Of a DNA stretch of 31,167 bases, positions 18,525 through 30,989 are shown in pieces; within the stretch, counting starts at the first letter, position 1, and each line of letters opens with the position of its first letter. A program made the position numbers and the translations under genes. The notes beneath the pieces were generated by a model that searched no databases, was not told the origin of the DNA, and was given only the letters and a program-made list of their open reading frames with translations. This stretch comes from Phycisphaerales bacterium UBA1161 (GTDB lineage: Bacteria; Planctomycetota; Phycisphaerae; Tepidisphaerales; Tepidisphaeraceae), in the NCBI GenBank assembly GCA_002311745.1, contig DBZL01000041.1, forward strand, positions 1-31,167. Direction: 5' to 3'.

Positions 18525-19937
18525 TTAGGGAATCAGCGGCGGCAGGGTGGCGCTGACCATTTCTTCTTCGGCGAGGCTCGGCGGCTGCGGCATTTCCGCC
18601 TGCTGCCGCAGCACCCGCAGGGTGTACCACGGCAGCCAGATGGCGCATCGGGCCGTGGCCGCCACGATCGTACCCAGCACGATGCCTTTCAGACCCAGGT
18701 GAAAGAAGCGTACCAGGGTGTAGTTGAGCACCACGTTGGCCACCCCCGCGATGAGGACCGAGGCGGTGAAAGCGCGAACTTTACCAATGGCCAGCAGAAT
18801 CGACCGTCCCACGGCGCTGCTGCCGCCGATGACGGTGTGAATCAGCATCCACGGCAGGATGGCGCAGGTGGCCGGAAACGGATTGCCAAGCAGTAAACGG
18901 AACAGAAAGGGCGAAGCCCACCAAATGAACGGGGCGATGACCAAGAGCATCGCCGCGGTGGCCAGGGTCCCCAGGAGGTAATAGCGGCGAACCGCCCGGC
19001 TGTCTCCGGAGACATGGGCGATGGCCGTGCGCGGCATCAGCACCAACGCCAAGGCCGAGGCCAACAGCAACATTCCGCCGTCCACTTCCACCGCCGGAAC
19101 ATAATCTGCCACGGTTTCGAATGAAATCAGCTTGGTGATGATCAGGTAATCGGTGGGTGCGTAAAGAAAATCGGCCATCTGCGCCGCGACGATCATGCCG
19201 CCGAACAGCAATAGCCGGCGTACGATGCGCCCGTCGAACTTGGTCCACCACCTTTCGAACACGCCGCTGCCCATATGATGAGAGAGGATCGAGCGCAGCG
19301 CCAGCAGCATCGCTGAACCAGCCATGAGCGGCCATCCGGTGGCGCGTTGCCAGGGCCAATGCAGCACATACAGGCCGATCACGGTGCCGCCGCCCCAGAC
19401 GATCTCGTGCAAACTGAGAAACAGGTTGTCGGCGAAGATTCTGCCTCGCGTTTGCAGCACCGCGCCGGGGGCGTCGCTGATCATGCGCAGAAGCGTGGCG
19501 ATGGCGACCATCAGCGCCAACTCGAATAGGGTGTTGCCCGTTTGGAGGTTGACGTGGGTGGTCTTGAACCAGGGCATGAACAGGGCCACGGCCAATCCAC
19601 CGGTCAGTGCCGTCAGCAGGGCCATGGCAAAACCGTTGGCATAGACGACACGCACGGCCGGCAGCAGCGGGGCGGTTTCATACGACCGATTCGACCCTGC
19701 GTCGTTGTCGCCGTGCCGCAGCGCCTCGGCCGTGAGGCGAATGATGGCCGGGCTCAGGCCGACGGCCGCGTATTCCAGGAGTCCCACCGTGGATTGAATA
19801 AGACCCAACTGGGCGAAGGCGAGTTTTCCCGCCACGCGCATCACCGTCGCGATCACCACCAGAAACGCCGTGATGCGCGATCCGCTGACCACACACGCCG
19901 AGACAAGGTCCCGACTAAGATTTTTTGCACCTGACAC
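18525..19937 (-). CDS. MOP-superfamily polysaccharide flippase (Wzx-like)
   Basis: A 470-residue membrane protein with 12 to 14 hydrophobic segments, fitting the oligosaccharide flippase group of the MOP superfamily, which moves lipid-linked glycans across the inner membrane. Visible features are the N-terminal SRDLVSACVVSGSRITAFL segment and the central FGGMIVAAQMADFLYAPTDYLIITKLIS, the usual repeat in which a polar helix enters the lumen. Near the end, ANVVLNYTLVRFFHLGLKGIVLGT matches the common N-x3-Y and G-x3-G pattern. The start is a GTG at 19937 without a clear ribosome binding site, so a later start is possible. The GT87 gene ends 19 bases upstream, so the two are likely one unit. The glycan is unknown. 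Confidence 0.82.
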   Translation of the reverse strand: MSGAKNLSRDLVSACVVSGSRITAFLVVIATVMRVAGKLAFAQLGLIQSTVGLLEYAAVGLSPAIIRLTAEALRHGDNDAGSNRSYETAPLLPAVRVVYANGFAMALLTALTGGLAVALFMPWFKTTHVNLQTGNTLFELALMVAIATLLRMISDAPGAVLQTRGRIFADNLFLSLHEIVWGGGTVIGLYVLHWPWQRATGWPLMAGSAMLLALRSILSHHMGSGVFERWWTKFDGRIVRRLLLFGGMIVAAQMADFLYAPTDYLIITKLISFETVADYVPAVEVDGGMLLLASALALVLMPRTAIAHVSGDSRAVRRYYLLGTLATAAMLLVIAPFIWWASPFLFRLLLGNPFPATCAILPWMLIHTVIGGSSAVGRSILLAIGKVRAFTASVLIAGVANVVLNYTLVRFFHLGLKGIVLGTIVAATARCAIWLPWYTLRVLRQQAEMPQPPSLAEEEMVSATLPPLIP

Positions 19938-19956
19938 GGGAGGGGAATATAGCGAC

Positions 19957-21288
19957 TTATGTCGGCAAGGCGATGGGCGCCGTCGGCTGGGATGCCGTCG
20001 CCGCGCCGCTTTGGCGGCGCAGGGCGCGGCGGATCAGCAGGACCGCGGTTAACGCCAGCAGGGGAACGGTGAGATGCAGCCGGGTGTGATCGGCGATGGG
20101 CGTGGCCACTTCCATGACCAGGTACAGGACCAGCCAGACCCACGGCAGCCAGCGGTCTTCCCAACCGTTGTCCGCGGCGGGCCCGCGCTGCCGATCCGCC
20201 GCGTACACCACCGCGGCCACGACGAGCAAGAGCAGATCGTAATCAAAATAGAACGGCATCAGCAGCGGCATGGCGGCGATTGTGGCGGCGATCAAACGGT
20301 CGGTCTGCGACGGCGACGGTTTTCCTCGCAGCGTATGCCAGATCACCGCAAGCAAACCCACCGCCAGCGCCGCCGCGCACGCGCCCCACAGCGCCACCAC
20401 CAGCGGCGATGCCGGCCCCACCGCCCAACCCTGGATCAGCAGACGCCAAAATCCCTTGAACGTGACGTGCCGTTGCCACAGATAGCGGTGCTCCACCTGC
20501 ATCCAATGCAAGTTGGCGGGCATGTGGATAATAAAGTCGTGCAGACTGCCGGGCATGCTCAGCAGATTGATCGCCAACAGCGCCAGGCCCATCGCGCCCA
20601 CGCCCGCCAGTGCCGCCCAGCCCTGGCTGAGGCACAGGACAATAGCGACGACCGCCGCAAGCTGCGGCTTGTACAGCAGCAGGCCGCAGACCAGTCCCGC
20701 CGCAAATCCGCGCCCGCTGCGCCACAAGCCGACTGTGATCGTCAACAGCAGCAGCGAGACAAACGTGTTTTGCGCATGACTGGCGGCCTGGATGAACGGC
20801 ATCGCCGTCAGCAGGAACAGGGGCACCAGCAGCTTGGTCTTCCAATCGCCCCGGAGCATCCGGCACAGCAGAAAAAGCGACGCGATCAGACAGCACAACT
20901 CGATCATCCACCACAGGGCCAAAGCCCGGCGGTAAGAGAACGCCGACAGGGGCGCGAACATCCACGCGGCAAACGGCGGGTTCCACCACGGGCCGAAGCT
21001 CTCGCCCAGTTCCAGGTCCGCCGCGCGGCCGGTGGCCCTCTCGAAATCCCGGGCGGCATCCAGGTCGTACAGCTTCTGGTACTGCCCCGTGCGGGCGCAA
21101 GTTCCGCCAAAATAGAAGACCAGAAAATCGTGCCCCAGCATCCGCCGCGTCACCGCGCGGTCCTTGGAGATGCAGAAGTTGCCGACGATAAAGGTGAGCA
21201 GGAAGACGGCCACCAGGCCGCCGGCCTTCCAAAGAAAGATGCGCGGATCCCTGCGAGCCGCCTTTTGCGCCGGTGCCTGAGCGTCCAT
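19957..21288 (-). CDS. GT87 (DUF2029) mannosyltransferase-like membrane protein
   Basis: A 443-residue polytopic protein of the GT87 group, GT-C enzymes that include polyprenyl-phosphate-mannose-dependent mannosyltransferases such as PimE. The first loop after TM1 has GHDFLVFYFGGTCARTGQYQKLYD, in which the Asp is the expected catalytic residue; then FGPWWNPPFAAWMFAPLS carries the NPP element typical of the group. A GLLLYKPQLA segment follows, also characteristic. I chose the ATG at 21288 over a TTG eight codons upstream because the TTG is a weaker start. It precedes the flippase gene closely on the same strand, which supports joint work on a surface glycan. Sugar and acceptor are not known. 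Confidence 0.82.
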   Translation of the reverse strand: MDAQAPAQKAARRDPRIFLWKAGGLVAVFLLTFIVGNFCISKDRAVTRRMLGHDFLVFYFGGTCARTGQYQKLYDLDAARDFERATGRAADLELGESFGPWWNPPFAAWMFAPLSAFSYRRALALWWMIELCCLIASLFLLCRMLRGDWKTKLLVPLFLLTAMPFIQAASHAQNTFVSLLLLTITVGLWRSGRGFAAGLVCGLLLYKPQLAAVVAIVLCLSQGWAALAGVGAMGLALLAINLLSMPGSLHDFIIHMPANLHWMQVEHRYLWQRHVTFKGFWRLLIQGWAVGPASPLVVALWGACAAALAVGLLAVIWHTLRGKPSPSQTDRLIAATIAAMPLLMPFYFDYDLLLLVVAAVVYAADRQRGPAADNGWEDRWLPWVWLVLYLVMEVATPIADHTRLHLTVPLLALTAVLLIRRALRRQSGAATASQPTAPIALPT

Positions 21289-21371
21289 GGGATGCGTACC
21301 GTATCGGCCCAAGACCGGCGCGATCTTGCCAATCGGCGGGCGGCCCAGCGGCGGCGTTTATGGGACGCTCG

Positions 21372-21952: not shown

Positions 21953-22606
21953 TCAGGCAATCTTAGGCGCGGCGGGGGCGGTTGCCGACAGCTCGTCGAC
22001 GTGGGCGGAAAGACGCTGAATTTCCTGGCTGATCTGAGCGAGGGATTTTTCCCACTGCCCGGTCGAGCGGGATGCGGCATCCGGGAGGTGCTGCGCCATG
22101 GCTTCCAGCGAGGCCATCGGCGTGCGCAGCTCCTGGCCCAACGTCGCCAACGACTGCTGCATCCCGGCGATGGTGTCGAGCAGGCGGTTGCGCTCGGACT
22201 CCAGTTGCGCGGCCTGCGCGGCCTGGTCGTGCAGGCGCACCGTGTGCTCGCCGGCGCGCAAACGCGCCAGCAGCTCTCCCCGATGAAAGGGCTTGGTCAT
22301 GAAATCGTTGGCGCCCGAATCCAGCGCCGCGATGGTCAAGGCGCGCTCGATATGCGCGGTGAGAATGATCAGATCCGTGAACGGAATGGCCAAATCAGCG
22401 CGGACCTGGCGGCAGAACTCGATGCCGTTCATCACCGGCATGTCGTAGTCGATCAGGGCGATGCGCGGGCCGTGGTTGCGCAGGACCGCCAGCCCCTCCG
22501 CGCCGCTGCAGGACTCGACGACTTCGTATCCCGCCGTGGTCAGGTGCGCCTGAAGCAGCTGGCGCAGCATGGGATCGTCATCCACGATCAGCACTCGCGA
22601 CGGCAT
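21953..22606 (-). CDS. Response regulator with a HisKA-like domain lacking the phospho-His
   Basis: From the ATG at 22606 the protein has 217 residues. Residues 1-120 are a REC domain with acidic pocket D9-D11, phospho-acceptor D53 in LIDYDMP, a conserved Thr in ILTAH and K105 in FMTKPF. Residues about 122-155 form a coiled coil. They lead to GQELRTPMASLEAM (157-170), which closely resembles the H-box of histidine kinases, except that Q158 stands where the phospho-accepting His belongs. A second helix, ISQEIQRLSAHVDELS, completes a four-helix-bundle-like hairpin. No ATPase domain follows. It may dimerise or bind a kinase without accepting phosphate. It is divergent from the yfiR cluster across 323 bases. 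Confidence 0.85.
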   Translation of the reverse strand: MPSRVLIVDDDPMLRQLLQAHLTTAGYEVVESCSGAEGLAVLRNHGPRIALIDYDMPVMNGIEFCRQVRADLAIPFTDLIILTAHIERALTIAALDSGANDFMTKPFHRGELLARLRAGEHTVRLHDQAAQAAQLESERNRLLDTIAGMQQSLATLGQELRTPMASLEAMAQHLPDAASRSTGQWEKSLAQISQEIQRLSAHVDELSATAPAAPKIA

Positions 22607-22929
22607 ATCCCTTCCCCGCCATTTTGGCTGTTCTTTGTGGCGACACGCATCTGTTTCTTTCATCGCCGGTTCTGCGGCGGTCCTTTAGCGTGCGTAGACC
22701 TTTGCGGACCCTTGAGAACCGAGAAATGGGCGGAGTGATTCTCCGCGCCGCGGTAAGAACCCCCGTCGGCTGACTCCCGTTGCCGCGATTTACGGACCCG
22801 CTGGCCGCGACGCGCCGCTGCGGAAGATTCCGTCTATTCGGCTTATCCGGCCTCAGAATTCAGTCGATGTTTTCAGCACCCCGGTTTTGGGCCATCGCTC
22901 AGCCGCCCATAGTCTTGGAGCCATCGTTG
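22607..22929. other. 323-bp divergent intergenic region between the regulator and the yfiR cluster
   Basis: No gene is supported on either strand. A perfect 6-bp hairpin with a 5-base loop lies at 22730-22746 (GCGGAG and CTCCGC). No convincing -35/-10 pair was found. The promoters of both divergent units must lie here, so this is the likely place for regulation of the c-di-GMP cluster. Confidence 0.5.
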
Positions 22930-23151
22930 ATGCGACGAATCCCTCTCATCGTCGTGGCCTGTATTATGGGGTTGAGCGTTGCCTCGGTGACCGTCACAGT
23001 CGTCACCGAGGGGGACATCGCACGCAGGGGTTTGACCGGCGTTGCAGAACGGTTCCGCCTGGTGCCCGGCATGGAGGGGAGCCGGACCAATGCCGATACG
23101 TGGTATGTCGGCTGGCGCGCCAGCCTCCGCCGGGGGACACGATCGGTCTAA
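22930..23151 (+). CDS. Candidate small exported or membrane protein upstream of yfiR
   Basis: A 73-residue ORF starts at ATG 22930, with GGAG 9 bases upstream. It opens with MRRIPLIVVACIMGLSVASV, a basic start followed by a hydrophobic stretch like a signal peptide or single helix. The remainder is short, Arg-rich and shows no known motif. It ends 40 bases before the yfiR start and would be the first gene of that unit. Coding status is uncertain; it may be leader sequence only. Confidence 0.35.
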   Translation: MRRIPLIVVACIMGLSVASVTVTVVTEGDIARRGLTGVAERFRLVPGMEGSRTNADTWYVGWRASLRRGTRSV

Positions 23152-23191
23152 CGCCGCGCGGATCGCCGCCATGCGAGGATATGGAAACATC

Positions 23192-23743
23192 ATGGATGGG
23201 CGGGTCGTCAGGTTGGGTTCCGCGGCCGTGCTGGCGGTGTTGTGCGTGGCGACGGCGATGACCCGGGGCGACGAGCCGAGCCGTGAGTACCAAGTCAAGG
23301 CTGCGTTTCTCTTTAACTTTGCGGAGTTCACGCAATGGCCGGACAGCGCCTTTGCCGGTTCCGATGGCCCGTTCGTGGTGGCTGTTATCGGCCAGAATCC
23401 CTTCGGCCAGGCGCTGGAACATACCATGGAGGGCAAATCCATCGCCGGTCATCCGGTCGTCGTCAGATATATCGACTCGTCCGGCGACGTTCCGGGTTGT
23501 CACGTGTTATTCGTCCCTGCCTCGGAGGATGGGCGCCTGGACGACATCTTCAAGCAGGTCGCGGACCGGCCGATACTTACTGTGGGAGAGTCGGAAAAAT
23601 TTCCCTGGGCAGGTGGCATCATCCGGTTTCTGATCGAGGACAACAAAGTCCGTTTCGAAATCAATCCGGACGCGGCGGCCAAGGCCTCTTTGCACATCAG
23701 CTCCAAGCTGATGTGCCTGGCACGGATCTTCAAAAAACAATAG
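23192..23743 (+). CDS. YfiR-family periplasmic protein (DUF4154)
   Basis: A 183-residue protein with a signal peptide (about residues 1-26, basic start then LGSAAVLAVLCVATAM) and a YfiR domain. The family signature EYQVKAAFLFNFAEFTQWP at about 31-49 is clear. Later blocks VAVIGQNPFGQAL, CHVLFVPASE, ILTVGESEKFPWAGGIIRFL and KASLHISSKLMCLARIF complete the fold. In Pseudomonas, YfiR binds the periplasmic part of the diguanylate cyclase YfiN and keeps it off. Here the next gene is a hybrid kinase with a similar sensor domain. The ATG at 23192 is chosen because the signal peptide starts there. Cysteines at residues about 18, 109 and 177 are present; YfiR is known to respond to redox state. Confidence 0.9.
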   Translation: MDGRVVRLGSAAVLAVLCVATAMTRGDEPSREYQVKAAFLFNFAEFTQWPDSAFAGSDGPFVVAVIGQNPFGQALEHTMEGKSIAGHPVVVRYIDSSGDVPGCHVLFVPASEDGRLDDIFKQVADRPILTVGESEKFPWAGGIIRFLIEDNKVRFEINPDAAAKASLHISSKLMCLARIFKKQ

Positions 23744-23783
23744 CTCCGCCGCCATGCCAAACCCAGGCAAGACAGGATCGTCC

Positions 23784-26109
<2,326 letters not shown>

Positions 26110-26135
<26 letters not shown>

Positions 26136-27018
26136 CGACTCCAAGTCCATGCACGCGCTGCTGCAGGCCAGGCTGCATCACGAGCCGGTCGAACTGCATT
26201 TCGCCTTGGACGGCCAGACCGGCCTGGCGATGGCCCTGCGCCTGCAGCCGGACCTGATCCTGTTGGACATCGACATGCCCGAGATCGACGGGTTTGAGGT
26301 TTGCCGGCGGCTCAAATCCGATGTCCGCACCCTGACCATTCCCGTCATTTTTCTGGCCGGCGACACCACCACCGAGCAGAAGATCAAGGGCCTGGAACTG
26401 GGCGCCACGGACTACGTCACCAAGCCCTTCGACGCCGCCGAGTTGCGCGCCCGCATCCGCGCCACCTTGCGGACCAAGTATCTCATGGACCTGCTGTCCC
26501 AGCGGGCCCTGCTGGACGGGCTGACGGGCCTGTGGAATCGCGTCTACTTCGACTCGCGCCTCTCCAGCGAATTGGTCCACATCCGCAGCGTCAACCAGCC
26601 GCTGTCTTGTCTCATGGTCGATCTGGACCATTTCCGGCAGTTGAACGAACGCTACGGCCATCATTTCGGCGACCAGGTGCTGCGCGAAACAGCGCGGATT
26701 CTTCTTCAGACCTGCCCGCCGGGCGACATCGTGTGCCGCTACGGCGGCGAGGAATTCGCCGTTCTGGTCCTGGGCACGACCGCCGAGCAGGCGACCGAGC
26801 TGGCCGAACGAATCCGCGATGCCATCCAGCAGAACACCTGGACCCACGGCGAACTGCCCGTGGAGGTGACCTGCAGCATCGGCGTGGCCGACCTGCAGCG
26901 CGTTCCGCCGCCGGGCGTGGTCGAACTGGCGGATGAGGCCATGTTCGAGGCCAAACGCGCCGGCAGGAACCGCGTCGTCATCGCCAAACGATTTGATTTT
27001 GCCAAAGGAGCCGCTTAA
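26110..27018 (+). CDS. Response regulator diguanylate cyclase (REC-GGDEF)
   Basis: A 302-residue protein. GAGGGAG lies about 6 bases before the ATG at 26110, inside the end of the kinase gene, so the two are coupled. REC (residues 1-120) has D9-D10, phospho-acceptor D53 in LLDIDMPEIDG and K105 in YVTKPF. The usual Thr before the helix is Ala (IFLAGD). The GGDEF domain (about 130-295) has DGLTGLWNR, DLDHFRQLNERYGHHFGD and the active signature RYGGEEF at 210-216, so it should make c-di-GMP from two GTP. The inhibitory I-site position RxxD reads PPGD (203-206), lacking Arg, so product inhibition may be absent. It is the natural receiver for the phosphorelay from the upstream kinase. Confidence 0.93.
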
Positions 27019-27041
27019 CGCCCCCCCCAAGCGAGCCAGGC

Positions 27042-29321
27042 ATGTCCCTCGCAACTCCAATCCGGCGCGTTCTGGTGATCGCCAGCGACCCGGCCGCCAG
27101 CGACGAGCTGTGCCGCGTTCTGGCCTGCGACCCGGAGGACTGGCGCGGACCCCTGGAGATCGACGCCGTCCGCCACGGCTCCGAAGGAAGCGAAAAAGTC
27201 GCTCAATCCCTGCAGGGCGGCCGTCCCTACGCCTTGGCGCTGATCGACGCCAATGCCCCCGATCCGCAAGCCATCGACGGCATCGTCAATATCTGGCGGG
27301 CCGATCCCAACTTGCAGATGCTGCTCTGCGCCGATGCCCCCGACTTGATTTTGCGCCAGATTCTGTCGCGCACCCAACACGCCGACCGCCTCTGGATGCT
27401 CAAAAAGCCTCTGGACCCGGCGCAAACGCGGCAACTGGTCGACGTCCTCACGCGCGCCTGGCAATGTGCGCGAAGCTCCGAATTGCGGGCGGCCCAGCTC
27501 GAGCAGACCATCCAGGCCGAACGCGCCCAGCGACAGCGCTTCGAGGAAGAGCTGCGCCTCAGCCAGGATCGCTTTGCCTTGGCCGTCGCCGGCTCCAACG
27601 ACGGCATCTGGGACTGGAACCTGGCCGATGGCCAGGTCTTCTATTCCCCGCGATGGAAGGCGATCCTGGGCTTCGCCGACGATGAAATCGCCGGCACGAT
27701 GGATGAGTGGTTCAAGCGCATTCACCCCGACGATCTGCATCGGGTCGAAGCCGAATTGGATTCCCATCTGGATGGGAAGACCGACCGCTTCCGCTGCGAA
27801 TACCGCCTGCGTCACAAGGACGGCTCCGACCGCTGGGTGCTGACGCAGGGCGTGGCCGTGCGCGATGAATCGGGCGTTGTGCGGCGCGTGGCCGGCTCGC
27901 AAACCGAGATCACCGACCGCAAGCTGGCCGAGGAGCAGCTCCGCCACGACGCCCTGCACGACCCCCTGACCGGCCTGGCCAACCGGCCCCTGCTGCTGGA
28001 CCGCATGAACCACTGCCTGGCCAGCGCCCAGCGCACCCCCAACTACCTCTTCGCCGTCCTCTTCCTGGACGTGGACCGCTTCAAGGTGATCAACGACAGC
28101 CTCGGTCACGATGCCGGGGATCAGCTCCTGGTGGAAATCGCCACGCGCATTATGACCGTCGTGCGCAGCATGGACATGGTGGCGCGGGTGGAGCCGGATC
28201 ACCTGGCGCGCTTTGGCGGGGACGAATTCGTGCTGCTGCTGGACGGCCTGAGCCAGCCGGAGGACGCCGTGCGCGTGGCCGAACGCCTCCTGAAGGCGTT
28301 GCAGGAGCCGTTCAAGTTCGGCCGGCACGACGTGTTCACCTCGGTGAGCATCGGCATCGCCTTCGGCAGCGCCTCCAGCCAGCGTCCGGAAACCGTTCTG
28401 CGTGACGCCGATGCCGCCCTGCACGCCGCCAAGACCGACCGCAAACAACGCTATCGCATCTACAACCCTGACATGCACGCCCGGGCCATGCGACACCTGG
28501 CCATGGAAGGCGAAATGCGCCAGGCGATCGACCGCGGCCAGCTCCGCCTGCACTACCAGCCGATCCATTCCCTGAGCACGGGAAAAATTGTGGAGTTCGA
28601 AACCCTGGTGCGCTGGCAACACCCGGAGCGCGGCCTGATCCCCCCGGCGGAGTTCATTCCCATGGCCGAGGAGACCGGCCTGATCATCCCCGTGGGCCGA
28701 TGGGTTCTGCGTACCGCCTGCCGGCAATTGGCCCAGTGGGACCGTCAGGAGCCGGCCATGGCGGATGTCGGTATCGGCGTTAACGTCTCCAGCCGGCAAT
28801 TCCTCAGCACCGACCTGGTCTCGGATGTGCGCGAGGCCCTTGCGGAGACCAGCCTGCGTCCGCAGCGTATCAGCCTGGAGATCACCGAAAGCGCCATCAT
28901 GGAAAGCGGCGCTCCGGCCCTGAACATCCTACCCGCCCTGCACGCCCTGGGCGTGCGCCTGCACCTGGACGATTTCGGCACCGGCTACTCATCCCTGGGC
29001 TATCTGAATCAGATGCCCATCGACGTGCTCAAAATCGACCGCTCCTTTGTGAGCCGGATCTGCACGGCCAAGACGGGCCTGTCGTTGGTGCAGGCGATCA
29101 TCGCCCTAGCTCGTTCGCTGAACATGCAGGTGATCGCCGAGGGCGTGGAGAGCGAGCAGCAGGTAGCCATCCTGACGGGCATGGGCTGCGATTACGTGCA
29201 AGGCTTCTACTTCGCCTCCGCGTTGGCACCGGACAAAGCCGTGGAGTATTGGAAGCGTTACATGAACTCGATCCACCTGCCCCTGAACAGCGGCATCTCC
29301 TCGATCAGCGAAGCGGTGTAA
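27042..29321 (+). CDS. REC-like/PAS/GGDEF/EAL c-di-GMP turnover protein
   Basis: A 759-residue cytoplasmic protein. The N-terminal REC-like domain (about 6-142) has a candidate acceptor D69 in ALIDANAPD and KKP at 121-123, but only part of the acidic pocket (ASDPAASDE), so phosphorylation is uncertain. A coiled coil leads to a PAS domain with PAC segment (about 172-295; DGIWDWNLADGQVFYSPRWK). GGDEF (about 300-470) has LTGLANR and RFGGDEF (391-396). EAL (about 485-745) has FETLVRW with E520, NVSSRQF, LEITESAIME, LDDFGTGYSSLGYL, LKIDRSF and IAEGVES, all residues needed for c-di-GMP hydrolysis. Both enzymatic halves look intact, so net activity is open. It starts 23 bases after the cyclase gene and is likely the last gene of the operon. 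Confidence 0.92.
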   Translation: MSLATPIRRVLVIASDPAASDELCRVLACDPEDWRGPLEIDAVRHGSEGSEKVAQSLQGGRPYALALIDANAPDPQAIDGIVNIWRADPNLQMLLCADAPDLILRQILSRTQHADRLWMLKKPLDPAQTRQLVDVLTRAWQCARSSELRAAQLEQTIQAERAQRQRFEEELRLSQDRFALAVAGSNDGIWDWNLADGQVFYSPRWKAILGFADDEIAGTMDEWFKRIHPDDLHRVEAELDSHLDGKTDRFRCEYRLRHKDGSDRWVLTQGVAVRDESGVVRRVAGSQTEITDRKLAEEQLRHDALHDPLTGLANRPLLLDRMNHCLASAQRTPNYLFAVLFLDVDRFKVINDSLGHDAGDQLLVEIATRIMTVVRSMDMVARVEPDHLARFGGDEFVLLLDGLSQPEDAVRVAERLLKALQEPFKFGRHDVFTSVSIGIAFGSASSQRPETVLRDADAALHAAKTDRKQRYRIYNPDMHARAMRHLAMEGEMRQAIDRGQLRLHYQPIHSLSTGKIVEFETLVRWQHPERGLIPPAEFIPMAEETGLIIPVGRWVLRTACRQLAQWDRQEPAMADVGIGVNVSSRQFLSTDLVSDVREALAETSLRPQRISLEITESAIMESGAPALNILPALHALGVRLHLDDFGTGYSSLGYLNQMPIDVLKIDRSFVSRICTAKTGLSLVQAIIALARSLNMQVIAEGVESEQQVAILTGMGCDYVQGFYFASALAPDKAVEYWKRYMNSIHLPLNSGISSISEAV

Positions 29322-29362
29322 GCGTTAGTTGCTGGCGGCTGGTTGCCAGTTGCTAGTGGGGA

Positions 29363-29388
29363 ATTCGTCATTCGTCATTCGTCATTCG
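29363..29388 (+). repeat. Tandem 7-bp repeat ATTCGTC
   Basis: The unit ATTCGTC occurs three times and then partly a fourth time. The array is bounded by AATTCG (29362-29367) and CGAATT (29387-29392), which form inverted ends. Confidence 0.7.
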
Positions 29389-29408
29389 AATTTCGGCGCT
29401 CCCCCTCT

Positions 29409-29435
29409 CCCTCTCTCCCCCTCCCCCTCTCTCCC
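29409..29435 (+). repeat. Homopyrimidine mirror repeat
   Basis: A run of C and T only extends over about 29401-29440. Within it 13 bases on each side of T29422 are a perfect mirror image, the arrangement that can form triplex (H-)DNA under supercoiling. Confidence 0.6.
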
Positions 29436-29483
29436 CCTCTACTTTCTCGCGCCGCGTGCCCTCGCGCACGTCCTTGTTAATAG

Positions 29484-29503
29484 CTGCGGGCGGAAGCCCG
29501 CAG
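29484..29503. repeat. 8-bp hairpin with GGAA tetraloop
   Basis: CTGCGGGC and GCCCGCAG are perfect complements around GGAA, a GNRA-type loop on the plus-strand RNA. It lies 163 bases after the EAL gene stop. No T tract follows, so it may be an mRNA-stabilising or repeat element. Confidence 0.5.
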
Positions 29504-30038
29504 ACCCCGCTCCAAAAGACACCCATTGACCCGCCAAGGCTGCTCCTCAAGCCGAATCGCATGCCCTATTCCGCGCCCCGCAATTCGGCATCTCCCGTCC
29601 TACGGTGCGGGCAGCGCCCGCTCCTGCGCGACGCGATCGCCGCTGCCTGGGGACAGGCGTTGCGGCGTCGGTTCGCGGGTCGCTTGCCGCGAAATCTCCG
29701 GCCACGTCGCGCTCTTCTGGCGATGGGCTGACGCACGGCACGTTTTCCCGTGAAGTTCCCCCCGTTTAACATTTTTGGACGACTGGAACGGTGCTGGCCA
29801 TTTTTGCGCCCGGTTAAAACGAAATGCCGCAACGCGCCGGCGCCTCCGTCGGCGGAATTTTTTGTCGCGTCCGCACCCACGCTTGTCGCATTTTCGGAAT
29901 GACAAATCACCTGTTTTTTGGGGCGAAAATTGCTTTGCGGACCTCCCATCTGGCTCTACGTTAAGTTTTGGTGTTCCTGGAGCCGGGTTTCTATCCAGGC
30001 GTGCGGCGCACGTCCTCTCCGCACGGCAAAAGCGGGTT

Positions 30039-30072
30039 GAAGGTTCCTCGGCGGAGTCGAGGCCTTCCTTTT
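30039..30072 (+). promoter_or_regulatory. Terminator-like hairpin in the leader of the PEP-CTERM gene
   Basis: GAAGG and CCTCG (30039-30050, with a 2-base bulge) pair with CGAGG and CCTTC (30058-30067), followed by CTTTT. It ends about 62 bases before the ATG at 30135. It could be a weak attenuator or simply leader structure. Confidence 0.35.
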
Positions 30073-30134
30073 GCGACGCCTCCGTCACTGATGACGTGGA
30101 GCGGCAGTACACGGACAGCCAATGGGAGAGAAGC

Positions 30135-30989
30135 ATGTCGCCAACCAATCCGCCAGTACATCGTGCGCTGTTGGGTTCAGCGCTCGGCTCGCTCGCCATT
30201 TTCATTTTTTGCAGCGCCGCCCAAGCGGCCTCGTATGGGAATTTCGTCGGGCCGAACGTGGCATACATGAACGTCAATGAAGCGGACTCGCAACTCGTCG
30301 GGCCGCCGCCAGTAACTACGTCGCCCGCCCAGCTCTACGGCCTGCCGGCGCTCTCGCCGACGGGAGGCGACAACCTGGCGTTCCCCAACCTGTCCTTCAC
30401 CTCCCTGGCGGCCAGCGGTCAGTTCGAATTCCTGGACGGCAAGCTGGCCATGGACATCGCTCCGACCACGTCGAGCGCCTTCATTCATTCGCTGAACATC
30501 GATGAAGGCGGCGCCTGGAGAGTGCTGGGGCCGGCGGGTAACACCGCCAGCTCCGAAGCAACCCTGCTGGTCAACGATTTGCGGATCACTTCCCTGAACG
30601 GAACGCCCCTGGCAACGCCGATTATCGTCACCCCCAGCTTCAACGTGACGTACAACGTGCAGGTCGGATCGGCTAATGTGACGACCGGCGTGGGTGACTT
30701 TACCGTAAGCGCCATCGCCTCCAATGCCGCCGGGACCTGGGATATCGACGCCTATTTCAATCTCGACGCTGCCCTGGCCGCCGCTGGCGAGACCGGCGCT
30801 CGCATCACGGACATGTCCCTTGCCCTGGATAATCAGCTTTTGACACAGACGACCTCGGAGGCGACCCTGACCCTGGCGGAGATTGACAAGAAACACTTCG
30901 ACATCAGCGAGAACGTGCCGGAGCCGGCGACGATTTCACTGCTGGCCTTCGGCAGCCTGCTGATGCTCCGCCGCTCCGCCCGGCGGTAA
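30135..30989 (+). CDS. PEP-CTERM sorting-domain exported protein
   Basis: A 284-residue secreted protein. The ATG at 30135 has GGAGAG 4 bases upstream and begins a signal peptide with a hydrophobic stretch and probable cleavage after AQA at residue 31. The mature part is rich in Thr, Ala, Ser and Asn, with beta-strand character. The C-terminus is a clear PEP-CTERM signal: VPEP at 261-264, then a hydrophobic helix ISLLAFGSLLML and an RRSARR tail. In known systems an exosortase cuts this signal and the protein is attached to the envelope or released into an exopolysaccharide matrix. No exosortase is in the window. The gene appears monocistronic, with a strong terminator 35 bases after its stop. 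Its proximity to the c-di-GMP cluster fits a matrix role, by inference. Confidence 0.88.
   Translation: MSPTNPPVHRALLGSALGSLAIFIFCSAAQAASYGNFVGPNVAYMNVNEADSQLVGPPPVTTSPAQLYGLPALSPTGGDNLAFPNLSFTSLAASGQFEFLDGKLAMDIAPTTSSAFIHSLNIDEGGAWRVLGPAGNTASSEATLLVNDLRITSLNGTPLATPIIVTPSFNVTYNVQVGSANVTTGVGDFTVSAIASNAAGTWDIDAYFNLDAALAAAGETGARITDMSLALDNQLLTQTTSEATLTLAEIDKKHFDISENVPEPATISLLAFGSLLMLRRSARR

What the first reader, a model, noticed from the sequence alone, without database searches (positions are those of the whole stretch)
23192..29321. YfiR coupled to a CHASE8 phosphorelay kinase and a separate REC-GGDEF cyclase: a split, rewired YfiRN pathway
In the described YfiBNR system, YfiR represses YfiN, whose CHASE8-type sensor, HAMP and GGDEF are one chain. 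Here the gene after yfiR has a CHASE8-like sensor and HAMP on a hybrid kinase with REC and HPt. The next gene, overlapping by 26 bases, is a REC-GGDEF cyclase, followed by a GGDEF-EAL protein. Domain order and spacing are seen in the sequence. That YfiR controls the kinase, and that the HPt feeds D53 of the cyclase, is inference. If true, the system gains amplification and several control points.
Basis: partly seen in the sequence, partly recalled or inferred. Interest (0 to 1): 0.78.

Follow-up and report, generated by a model that had tools for sequence, protein, structure and literature searches.

The report
YfiR sensor kinase with separate c-di-GMP cyclase
A gene cluster from a likely planctomycete pairs the periplasmic regulator YfiR with a sensor kinase that carries a variant of YfiR's proposed docking motif, and the kinase likely passes phosphate to a separately encoded enzyme predicted to make the biofilm signal c-di-GMP, so a switch known as one protein in Pseudomonas would here run as a relay; the YfiR-kinase pairing was already known, the recurring link to a separate cyclase is the newer part.

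Summary
In detail: yfiR (23192-23743), a CHASE8-HisKA-HATPase-REC-HPt kinase (23754-26135), a REC-GGDEF gene overlapping it by 26 bases, and a PAS-GGDEF-EAL gene lie in series. The pairing is not new: Malone 2012 (PMC3375315) reported Yfi homologues with kinase outputs, and the window passes NCBI models for both partners. In my survey kinases are the usual partner: 154 of 168 complete CHASE8 genes beside yfiR. Added here: (1) the Phe of YfiN's proposed docking motif is kept in 178 of 184 YfiR-paired CHASE8 domains (window AAVAF) and 5 of 22 unpaired ones; some other columns fall too, less steeply; (2) YfiR distances track CHASE8 (0.50), not the kinase core of the same chain (0.00); (3) among hybrid kinases a GGDEF regulator gene comes next in 14 of 34 with Hpt, 0 of 50 without, and HPt distances track that receiver (0.70, n = 14). 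The four-gene order is the window's alone (1 of 149). Likely a YfiR-gated phosphorelay to c-di-GMP; binding, sign and phosphotransfer are untested.

The parts
23192..23743 (+). yfiR: YfiR-like periplasmic protein (DUF4154), 183 aa, hydrophobic signal-like segment at residues 5-23
   Evidence: PF13689 E 5.8e-46; NF053591 163.5 vs cut-off 125; AlphaFold model of the domain, pLDDT 93.2, matching PDB YfiR; hydrophobic segment
23754..26135 (+). hybrid sensor kinase TM-CHASE8-TM-HAMP-HisKA-HATPase-REC-HPt, 793 aa (an alternative start ATG is at 23784)
23907..24215 (+). CHASE8 periplasmic sensor domain (residues 52-154)
   Evidence: PF17152 57.1 bits, cut-off 27; PAS/Cache-type fold in the model
23967..23981 (+). 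AAVAF (residues 72-76), counterpart of the AAVVF motif proposed as the YfiR docking site of YfiN; Phe76
24642..24644 (+). HisKA phospho-acceptor His297
   Evidence: motif SHEIRTP
25551..25553 (+). phospho-acceptor Asp600 of the kinase's receiver
25833..26069 (+). HPt domain (residues 694-772), His727 in HQLKGAGGGYG (nt 25932-25934)
   Evidence: PF01627 46.3 bits, cut-off 24.6
26110..27018 (+). REC-GGDEF diguanylate cyclase response regulator, 302 aa; Asp53, GGEEF; no RxxD inhibitory site; Ala at the receiver's switch Thr position
27042..29321 (+). degenerate receiver-PAS-GGDEF-EAL protein, 759 aa; GGDEF and the EAL motifs searched for are present

Best explanation
The cluster encodes a YfiR-type periplasmic protein that likely docks on the CHASE8 sensor of the adjacent hybrid kinase, whose HisKA-REC-HPt chain would pass phosphate to the separately encoded REC-GGDEF cyclase and so set c-di-GMP, with the GGDEF-EAL protein predicted to remove it. 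Shown by sequence: the four genes, their domains, the conserved His/Asp/His/Asp residues, the motif, and the statistical ties YfiR-CHASE8 and HPt-receiver. Inferred: YfiR binds the AAVAF face and, as in P. aeruginosa, holds the sensor in a repressed state until released; phosphate then runs H297 -> D600 -> H727 -> D53; the phosphorylated receiver activates GGDEF. No YfiB-like or TonB-type partner was found among the 24 window ORFs scanned, so the releasing signal is unknown. YfiR plus CHASE8 behave as a portable input cassette, and the kinase core plus HPt plus receiver-GGDEF as an output cassette, joined inside the kinase gene.
For: YfiR-CHASE8: 33 of 40 DUF4154 places in the phylum have CHASE8 directly downstream; 31 of 34 DUF4154 genomes hold a CHASE8 match against 18 of 260 without DUF4154. 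The Phe of the proposed docking motif is kept in 178 of 184 paired but 5 of 22 unpaired CHASE8 domains; of 13 CHASE8 columns at least 80% conserved in paired proteins, the motif's Phe (98 to 25%) and first Ala (89 to 20%) fall most. Distances: YfiR~CHASE8 0.498, YfiR~HATPase 0.004, HATPase~HisKA 0.821; CHASE8 beats HATPase in 100 of 100 column bootstraps, 131 of 160 pairs used. The own genome gave one DUF4154 and one CHASE8 match. Relay: a GGDEF regulator comes next in 14 of 34 hybrid kinases with Hpt and 0 of 50 without, Fisher 4e-7, not corrected for kinship. Those 14 loci lie in Planctomycetota (9), Acidobacteria (2), Armatimonadetes, Deltaproteobacteria and an unnamed MAG. The phospho-Asp and Lys of their receivers are kept in 14 of 14. 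Receiver~HPt 0.70 (0 of 2000 permutations), ~HATPase 0.58, ~YfiR -0.12, ~CHASE8 -0.07. c-di-GMP use: 5 GGDEF and 3 PilZ matches in the genome, one PilZ with a stop inside.
Against: The window's REC-GGDEF is the only one of 14 with Ala at the receiver's switch Thr, and it lacks RxxD, so its activation may be atypical. Unpaired CHASE8 domains are more divergent in general: besides the motif, columns F100 (82 to 32%), Y103 (86 to 41%) and N61 (82 to 40%) also fall, and at least two unpaired genes (L050, L305) start at a contig end, where a yfiR could be missing. Co-divergence of neighbouring genes can reflect linkage without contact. The residue-level coupling test did not separate CHASE8 from HATPase (15 pairs at z > 4 each). 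Within the 8 planctomycete loci with the GGYG-type HPt, CHASE8 (0.54) tracks the receiver nearly as well as HPt (0.65). The 14 GGDEF-linked loci amount to only 7-8 changes on trees of 123 tips. 20 of 34 Hpt hybrids have no GGDEF regulator next. The window YfiR keeps only one of the four cysteines of P. aeruginosa YfiR in place.
Confidence: 0.66

Rival explanations
1. YfiR gates the kinase, but the HPt mainly serves another regulator elsewhere in the genome, and the two c-di-GMP genes are only co-transcribed neighbours.
For: 20 of 34 Hpt hybrids have no GGDEF gene next; the window's receiver has Ala at the switch position.
Against: 0 of 50 hybrids without Hpt have a GGDEF regulator next, and HPt distances track the receiver's (0.70, n = 14).
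Confidence: 0.17
2. YfiR acts as a ligand-bound co-receptor that activates, rather than represses, the CHASE8 kinase; the kinase may also act as a phosphatase in the default state.
For: The repressor data that I saw are for one-chain cyclases (PMC3375315, section 12 and passages); three of the four cysteines of P. aeruginosa YfiR are missing here; TonB-type receptors sit beside yfiR in 6 of 10 chosen ORFs from loci without adjacent CHASE8, hinting at a nutrient-linked input.
Against: The same motif is conserved, which favours the same mode of contact, though not the same sign.
Confidence: 0.3
3. The genes are adjacent for historical reasons only, and the CHASE8 domain senses a small molecule without YfiR.
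For: CHASE8 belongs to the Cache-like clan of sensors (PMC8846402, passage); the model resembles CitA, WalK and LapD-type sensor domains; several CHASE8 columns besides the motif fall in unpaired domains.
Against: The steepest falls are at the proposed docking motif, and YfiR co-diverges with CHASE8 alone.
Confidence: 0.07

Closest known systems
YfiBNR / TpbB system of Pseudomonas aeruginosa (DgcN in E. coli, HmsCDE in Yersinia)
   Same: YfiR-fold periplasmic protein encoded next to a CHASE8-HAMP membrane sensor with the AAVxF motif; predicted c-di-GMP output
   Different: Here the sensor sits on a hybrid kinase with HPt and the GGDEF is a separate response regulator; no yfiB was found among the 24 window ORFs scanned; one of the four YfiR cysteines kept; below the NCBI cut-off for classical YfiR (39.8 vs 85)
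NCBIfam NF053591 / NF053592 (TOL_0243 family YfiR-like protein and its associated sensor histidine kinase)
   Same: Both models passed (163.5 vs 125; 198.4 vs 194): the same YfiR-kinase pair
   Different: The kinase model has 223 positions and covers residues 19-244 here, the sensor end only; it does not cover HPt or downstream cyclases
Divergent Yfi modules described by Malone et al. 2012 (PMC3375315)
   Same: YfiR with a YfiN-like PAS/HAMP joined to histidine kinase, HPT or GGDEF-EAL outputs, mostly without yfiB
   Different: The text I read (section 12 whole, passages elsewhere) does not describe a separate REC-GGDEF cyclase downstream; its Table S4 could not be read
REC-GGDEF cyclases such as PleD and WspR (recalled)
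   Same: Receiver with intact phospho-Asp and Lys, followed by GGEEF
   Different: No RxxD inhibitory site; Ala at the switch Thr; predicted donor is the HPt of a hybrid kinase encoded next to yfiR

Membership tests
YfiR / DUF4154 | Profile match and fold | tested here: met
   PF13689 156.6 bits, cut-off 24.9; model matches PDB YfiR chains
Classical YfiR of YfiBNR (NCBIfam NF053586) | Score over the curated cut-off | tested here: not met
   39.8 vs 85 bits
Classical YfiR of YfiBNR (NCBIfam NF053586) | Four conserved cysteines (71-110, 145-152) | tested here: not met
   Only the Cys110 counterpart (C103) aligns; the window protein's cysteines are 18, 103 and 175
YfiBNR system | YfiN: CHASE8-HAMP-GGDEF in one chain | tested here: not met
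   The CHASE8 partner is a HisKA-HATPase-REC-HPt chain; the genome gave one CHASE8 match, this one; genome 79.5% complete
YfiBNR system | YfiB, OmpA-like lipoprotein, beside yfiR | tested here: not met
   No OmpA or TonB family among 24 window ORFs scanned; the rest of the genome was not searched for YfiB
TOL_0243 YfiR-like protein and associated kinase (NF053591/NF053592) | Both proteins over curated cut-offs, genes adjacent | tested here: met
   163.5 vs 125 and 198.4 vs 194
YfiR-YfiN[PAS/HAMP] core module (Malone 2012) | AAVVF-type motif on the sensor | tested here: met
   AAVAF, residues 72-76
YfiR-YfiN[PAS/HAMP] core module (Malone 2012) | YfiR-sensor binding | not testable with these tools
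   No complex could be modelled; residue-level coupling test uninformative
Hybrid-kinase phosphorelay | HisKA His, receiver Asp, HPt His and ATPase motifs present | tested here: met
   H297, D600, H727, DTGIGI and GGTGLGL
Hybrid-kinase phosphorelay | Phosphotransfer HPt to REC-GGDEF | not testable with these tools
   Only association and co-divergence
PleD/WspR-type REC-GGDEF cyclase | Phospho-Asp, Lys, GGD/EEF | tested here: met
   D53, the Lys of VTKPF, GGEEF
PleD/WspR-type REC-GGDEF cyclase | Switch Thr/Ser and RxxD inhibitory site | tested here: not met
   Ala in FLAGD; PPGD instead of RxxD

The most novel reading that the evidence does not exclude
YfiR plus CHASE8 is a portable periplasmic input cassette that has been spliced onto unrelated transmitters across bacteria, and c-di-GMP control was rebuilt several times by phosphorelay: where the kinase carries an HPt, a separate REC-GGDEF or REC-GGDEF-EAL gene can take the place of YfiN's fused GGDEF.
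Probability: 0.58. Interest if true: 0.6.

Novelty: new variant of a known kind. Interest (0 to 1): 0.47.

Why it matters
If true, one periplasmic YfiR-sensor contact is reused with a direct (fused GGDEF) and a relayed (HPt to REC-GGDEF) output, and the Phe of the AAxxF motif is a candidate sequence marker for CHASE8 sensors that are YfiR-gated. That would make YfiR control of many unstudied kinases in planctomycetes, acidobacteria and others directly testable.

Tried and rejected
Residue-level coupling (mutual information with APC) between YfiR and CHASE8: 15 pairs at z > 4, the same number as with the HATPase control, so uninformative at Neff about 111-121. Viral contigs: 2 stretches matched a pattern, no relative. 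Rfam: no match in the window at gathering scores. Promoter and terminator scan of 22600-29900: 0 promoter-like (shuffles 1.0) and 6 terminator-like sites (shuffles 5.0, sd 2.6), so nothing above chance. Literature: ten searches and passages or sections of five papers showed me no description of YfiR with a kinase and a separate REC-GGDEF; the other listed papers were seen as listings only, most subscription papers are not held, and Table S4 of PMC3375315 could not be read. Considered and rejected: that the locus is unique; that the four-gene order is conserved (1 of 149); that the GGDEF-linked loci are 14 independent events (7-8 changes).

Full report
What is there. On the + strand, in order: yfiR 23192-23743; a 793-aa kinase 23754-26135 (10 bases later, or 40 if ATG 23784 is the start); REC-GGDEF 26110-27018, overlapping the kinase by 26 bases; and a 759-aa protein 27042-29321 with PAS, GGDEF and EAL domains, 23 bases further on. 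Pfam places DUF4154 on the first, CHASE8, HisKA, HATPase_c, Response_reg and Hpt on the second, Response_reg and GGDEF on the third, PAS_3, GGDEF and EAL on the fourth, all above curated cut-offs; HAMP is below its cut-off. The N-terminal 145 aa of the fourth protein have no Pfam match, but phmmer relates them to receiver-bearing ORFs (best 1.1e-24), and the acidic pair is gone: a degenerate receiver. The genome is a 2.9-Mb draft, 79.5% complete. The phylum is Planctomycetota by inference: contig C115 of G003, a 'same phylum' genome, has the length (47,861) and kinase architecture of L245, a record named Planctomycetota whose yfiR was dropped as a duplicate.

Known before. NCBIfam has models for this YfiR subfamily and for 'sensor histidine kinase, YfiR-like protein-associated', and the window passes both cut-offs; it fails that of classical YfiR. 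All 50 kinase N-termini in one alignment match the kinase model at E <= 1e-4 (whether each passes the cut-off was shown for the window only). Malone et al. 2012 (PMC3375315; section 12 read whole, passages elsewhere) wrote that almost all distant Yfi operons lack yfiB and that in many cases the GGDEF of YfiN is replaced with GGDEF-EAL pairs, HPT or sensor histidine kinases, and proposed a modular YfiR-YfiN[PAS/HAMP] core. So the pairing is not a discovery.

Survey. Domains were called with profiles that I grew from the window's own domains. After removing two duplicates there are 221 yfiR ORFs; 184 have a CHASE8 ORF directly downstream; 168 of those are not cut by a contig end: 154 carry HATPase, 3 are CHASE8-GGDEF(-EAL) in one chain (L270, L297, L299), 11 show neither. 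A further one-chain case, L172, is cut by its contig end. Of 37 unpaired yfiR ORFs, 4 have under 500 bases of contig left; of 10 long downstream ORFs that I chose from unpaired loci, 6 are TonB-type receptors and one (L224) is a MASE1 kinase followed by a REC-GGDEF gene. In the window's own family, one search found yfiR in 7 genomes (19 listed without): besides the window, L128, L130, L133 and L135 have a GGDEF regulator after the kinase; L132 has an Hpt kinase with none in the 1215 bases left, L129 none, and L131 and L134 no CHASE8 in the contig held.

Does YfiR act on the CHASE8 domain? Three tests. Co-occurrence: 31 of 34 genomes with DUF4154 have CHASE8 against 18 of 260 without. Co-divergence: on 131 of 160 pairs (the rest lacked domain coverage), rank correlation of distance matrices is 0.498 for YfiR-CHASE8, 0.004 for YfiR-HATPase, -0.033 for YfiR-HisKA and 0.821 for HATPase-HisKA; so the kinase core of the same chain does not share YfiR's history while the sensor does. 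Motif: Malone et al. mapped YfiR-insensitive YfiN alleles to an AAVVF motif with a protruding Phe and proposed it as a YfiR-binding site. The window kinase has AAVAF, Phe76. The Phe is kept in 178 of 184 paired CHASE8 domains and in 5 of 22 without an adjacent yfiR (24 loci examined, 22 aligned; 5 of the 24 lie in genomes that have yfiR elsewhere; L050 and L305 start at a contig end). Column control: of 13 columns at least 80% conserved in paired proteins, the Phe (98 to 25%) and the motif's first Ala (89 to 20%) fall most; F100, Y103 and N61 fall by 42-50 points; the other eight, among them Gly142 (98 to 100%, 12 unpaired residues), Leu78, Ala55 and Asp70, fall by 19 points or less (column numbers as printed, not residue numbers). 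The motif is thus singled out, but unpaired domains are also more divergent overall.

Does the HPt feed a separate cyclase? Of 149 kinases with more than 700 bases of contig behind them, 14 are followed directly by a GGDEF-bearing regulator; a motif search found the same number and no case outside the profile's. All 14 kinases are hybrids with HPt. Pfam confirms Hpt in 31 of 31 called positive and finds 3 in the 53 hybrids called negative, so the corrected table is 14 of 34 with Hpt against 0 of 50 without; the 65 non-hybrids, none HPt-positive by my profile and none with GGDEF next, were not checked with Pfam. Nine of the 14 are planctomycetes (the window, L092, L128, L130, L133, L135, L140, L196, L205), the rest Armatimonadetes (L232), Acidobacteria (L247, L255), a deltaproteobacterium (L251) and an unnamed MAG (L278). 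L140's regulator is itself fused to a hybrid kinase, and L226 has a REC-GGDEF two genes on, not counted. Among the 14, HPt distances track the regulator's receiver (0.70, 0 of 2000 permutations), HATPase 0.58, YfiR -0.12, CHASE8 -0.07; dropping any one locus leaves 0.64-0.76, but within the 8 planctomycete loci that share the GGYG-type HPt, CHASE8 (0.54) also tracks it. On trees of 123 kinases the label takes 7-8 changes, so the events are far fewer than 14. The kinship-blind p value should therefore be read loosely.

Peculiarities of the window. Only here, among the 14, is the next gene a REC-GGDEF followed by a second, GGDEF-EAL protein; three relatives of the same family have one REC-PAS-GGDEF-EAL gene, a fourth has REC-GGDEF without it (L128, L130, L135, L133). 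The window's receiver has Ala at the switch position where the other 13 have Thr, and its GGDEF has no RxxD. YfiR keeps one of the four cysteines of P. aeruginosa YfiR in place, so the disulphide-based redox control proposed for YfiR/HmsC (PMC4655355, PMC5550408, passages) is unlikely here. No OmpA- or TonB-type partner was found among the 24 window ORFs scanned.

Structures. The YfiR model (24 sequences, pLDDT 93.2) matches PDB YfiR chains at TM 0.73-0.78. The kinase N-terminus (50 sequences, pLDDT 93.2, pTM 0.71) is a TM-PAS/Cache-TM arrangement; its six matches at E <= 1e-3 include a LapD-type and WalK sensor domains. In the model the short helix 61-65 ends just before the motif's Phe, residue 66. 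No complex could be modelled.

Verdict. The anatomy is real; the YfiR-kinase pairing is already known; the HPt-linked separate cyclase is a recurring variant that I did not find described in the searches named. Mechanism steps that remain inferred are the binding of YfiR, its sign, the phosphotransfer and the enzyme activities.

Noticed in passing
window 21953-22663 (-): Divergent gene upstream of yfiR: receiver plus a HisKA-like match without HATPase, with Gln where the phospho-acceptor His is expected (GQELRTP, read from the sequence): a pseudo-kinase-like protein.
   Followed up: partly
L143, L163, L184, L210, L218, L253: In yfiR loci where CHASE8 is not directly downstream, TonB-dependent receptors sit next to yfiR (6 of 10 chosen ORFs), suggesting an outer-membrane partner other than YfiB.
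   Followed up: partly
L172:1-3317: A same-class locus with yfiR followed by a contig-truncated CHASE8-PAS-GGDEF-EAL chain, i.e. the one-chain form.
   Followed up: no
L214, L216, L217, L219: Same-class loci whose DUF4154 match is split into two stretches within one longer ORF (313-325 aa), perhaps an insertion in YfiR.
   Followed up: no
window 18525-21312 (-): A marginal polysaccharide-flippase-like match (23.5 vs cut-off 23) and a GT87 glycosyltransferase gene lie close to the c-di-GMP cluster.
   Followed up: no
window 29775-30989 (+): ORF ending in a PEP-CTERM-like tail (VPEPATISLLAFGSLLMLRRSARR, label recalled), no Pfam match.
   Followed up: no
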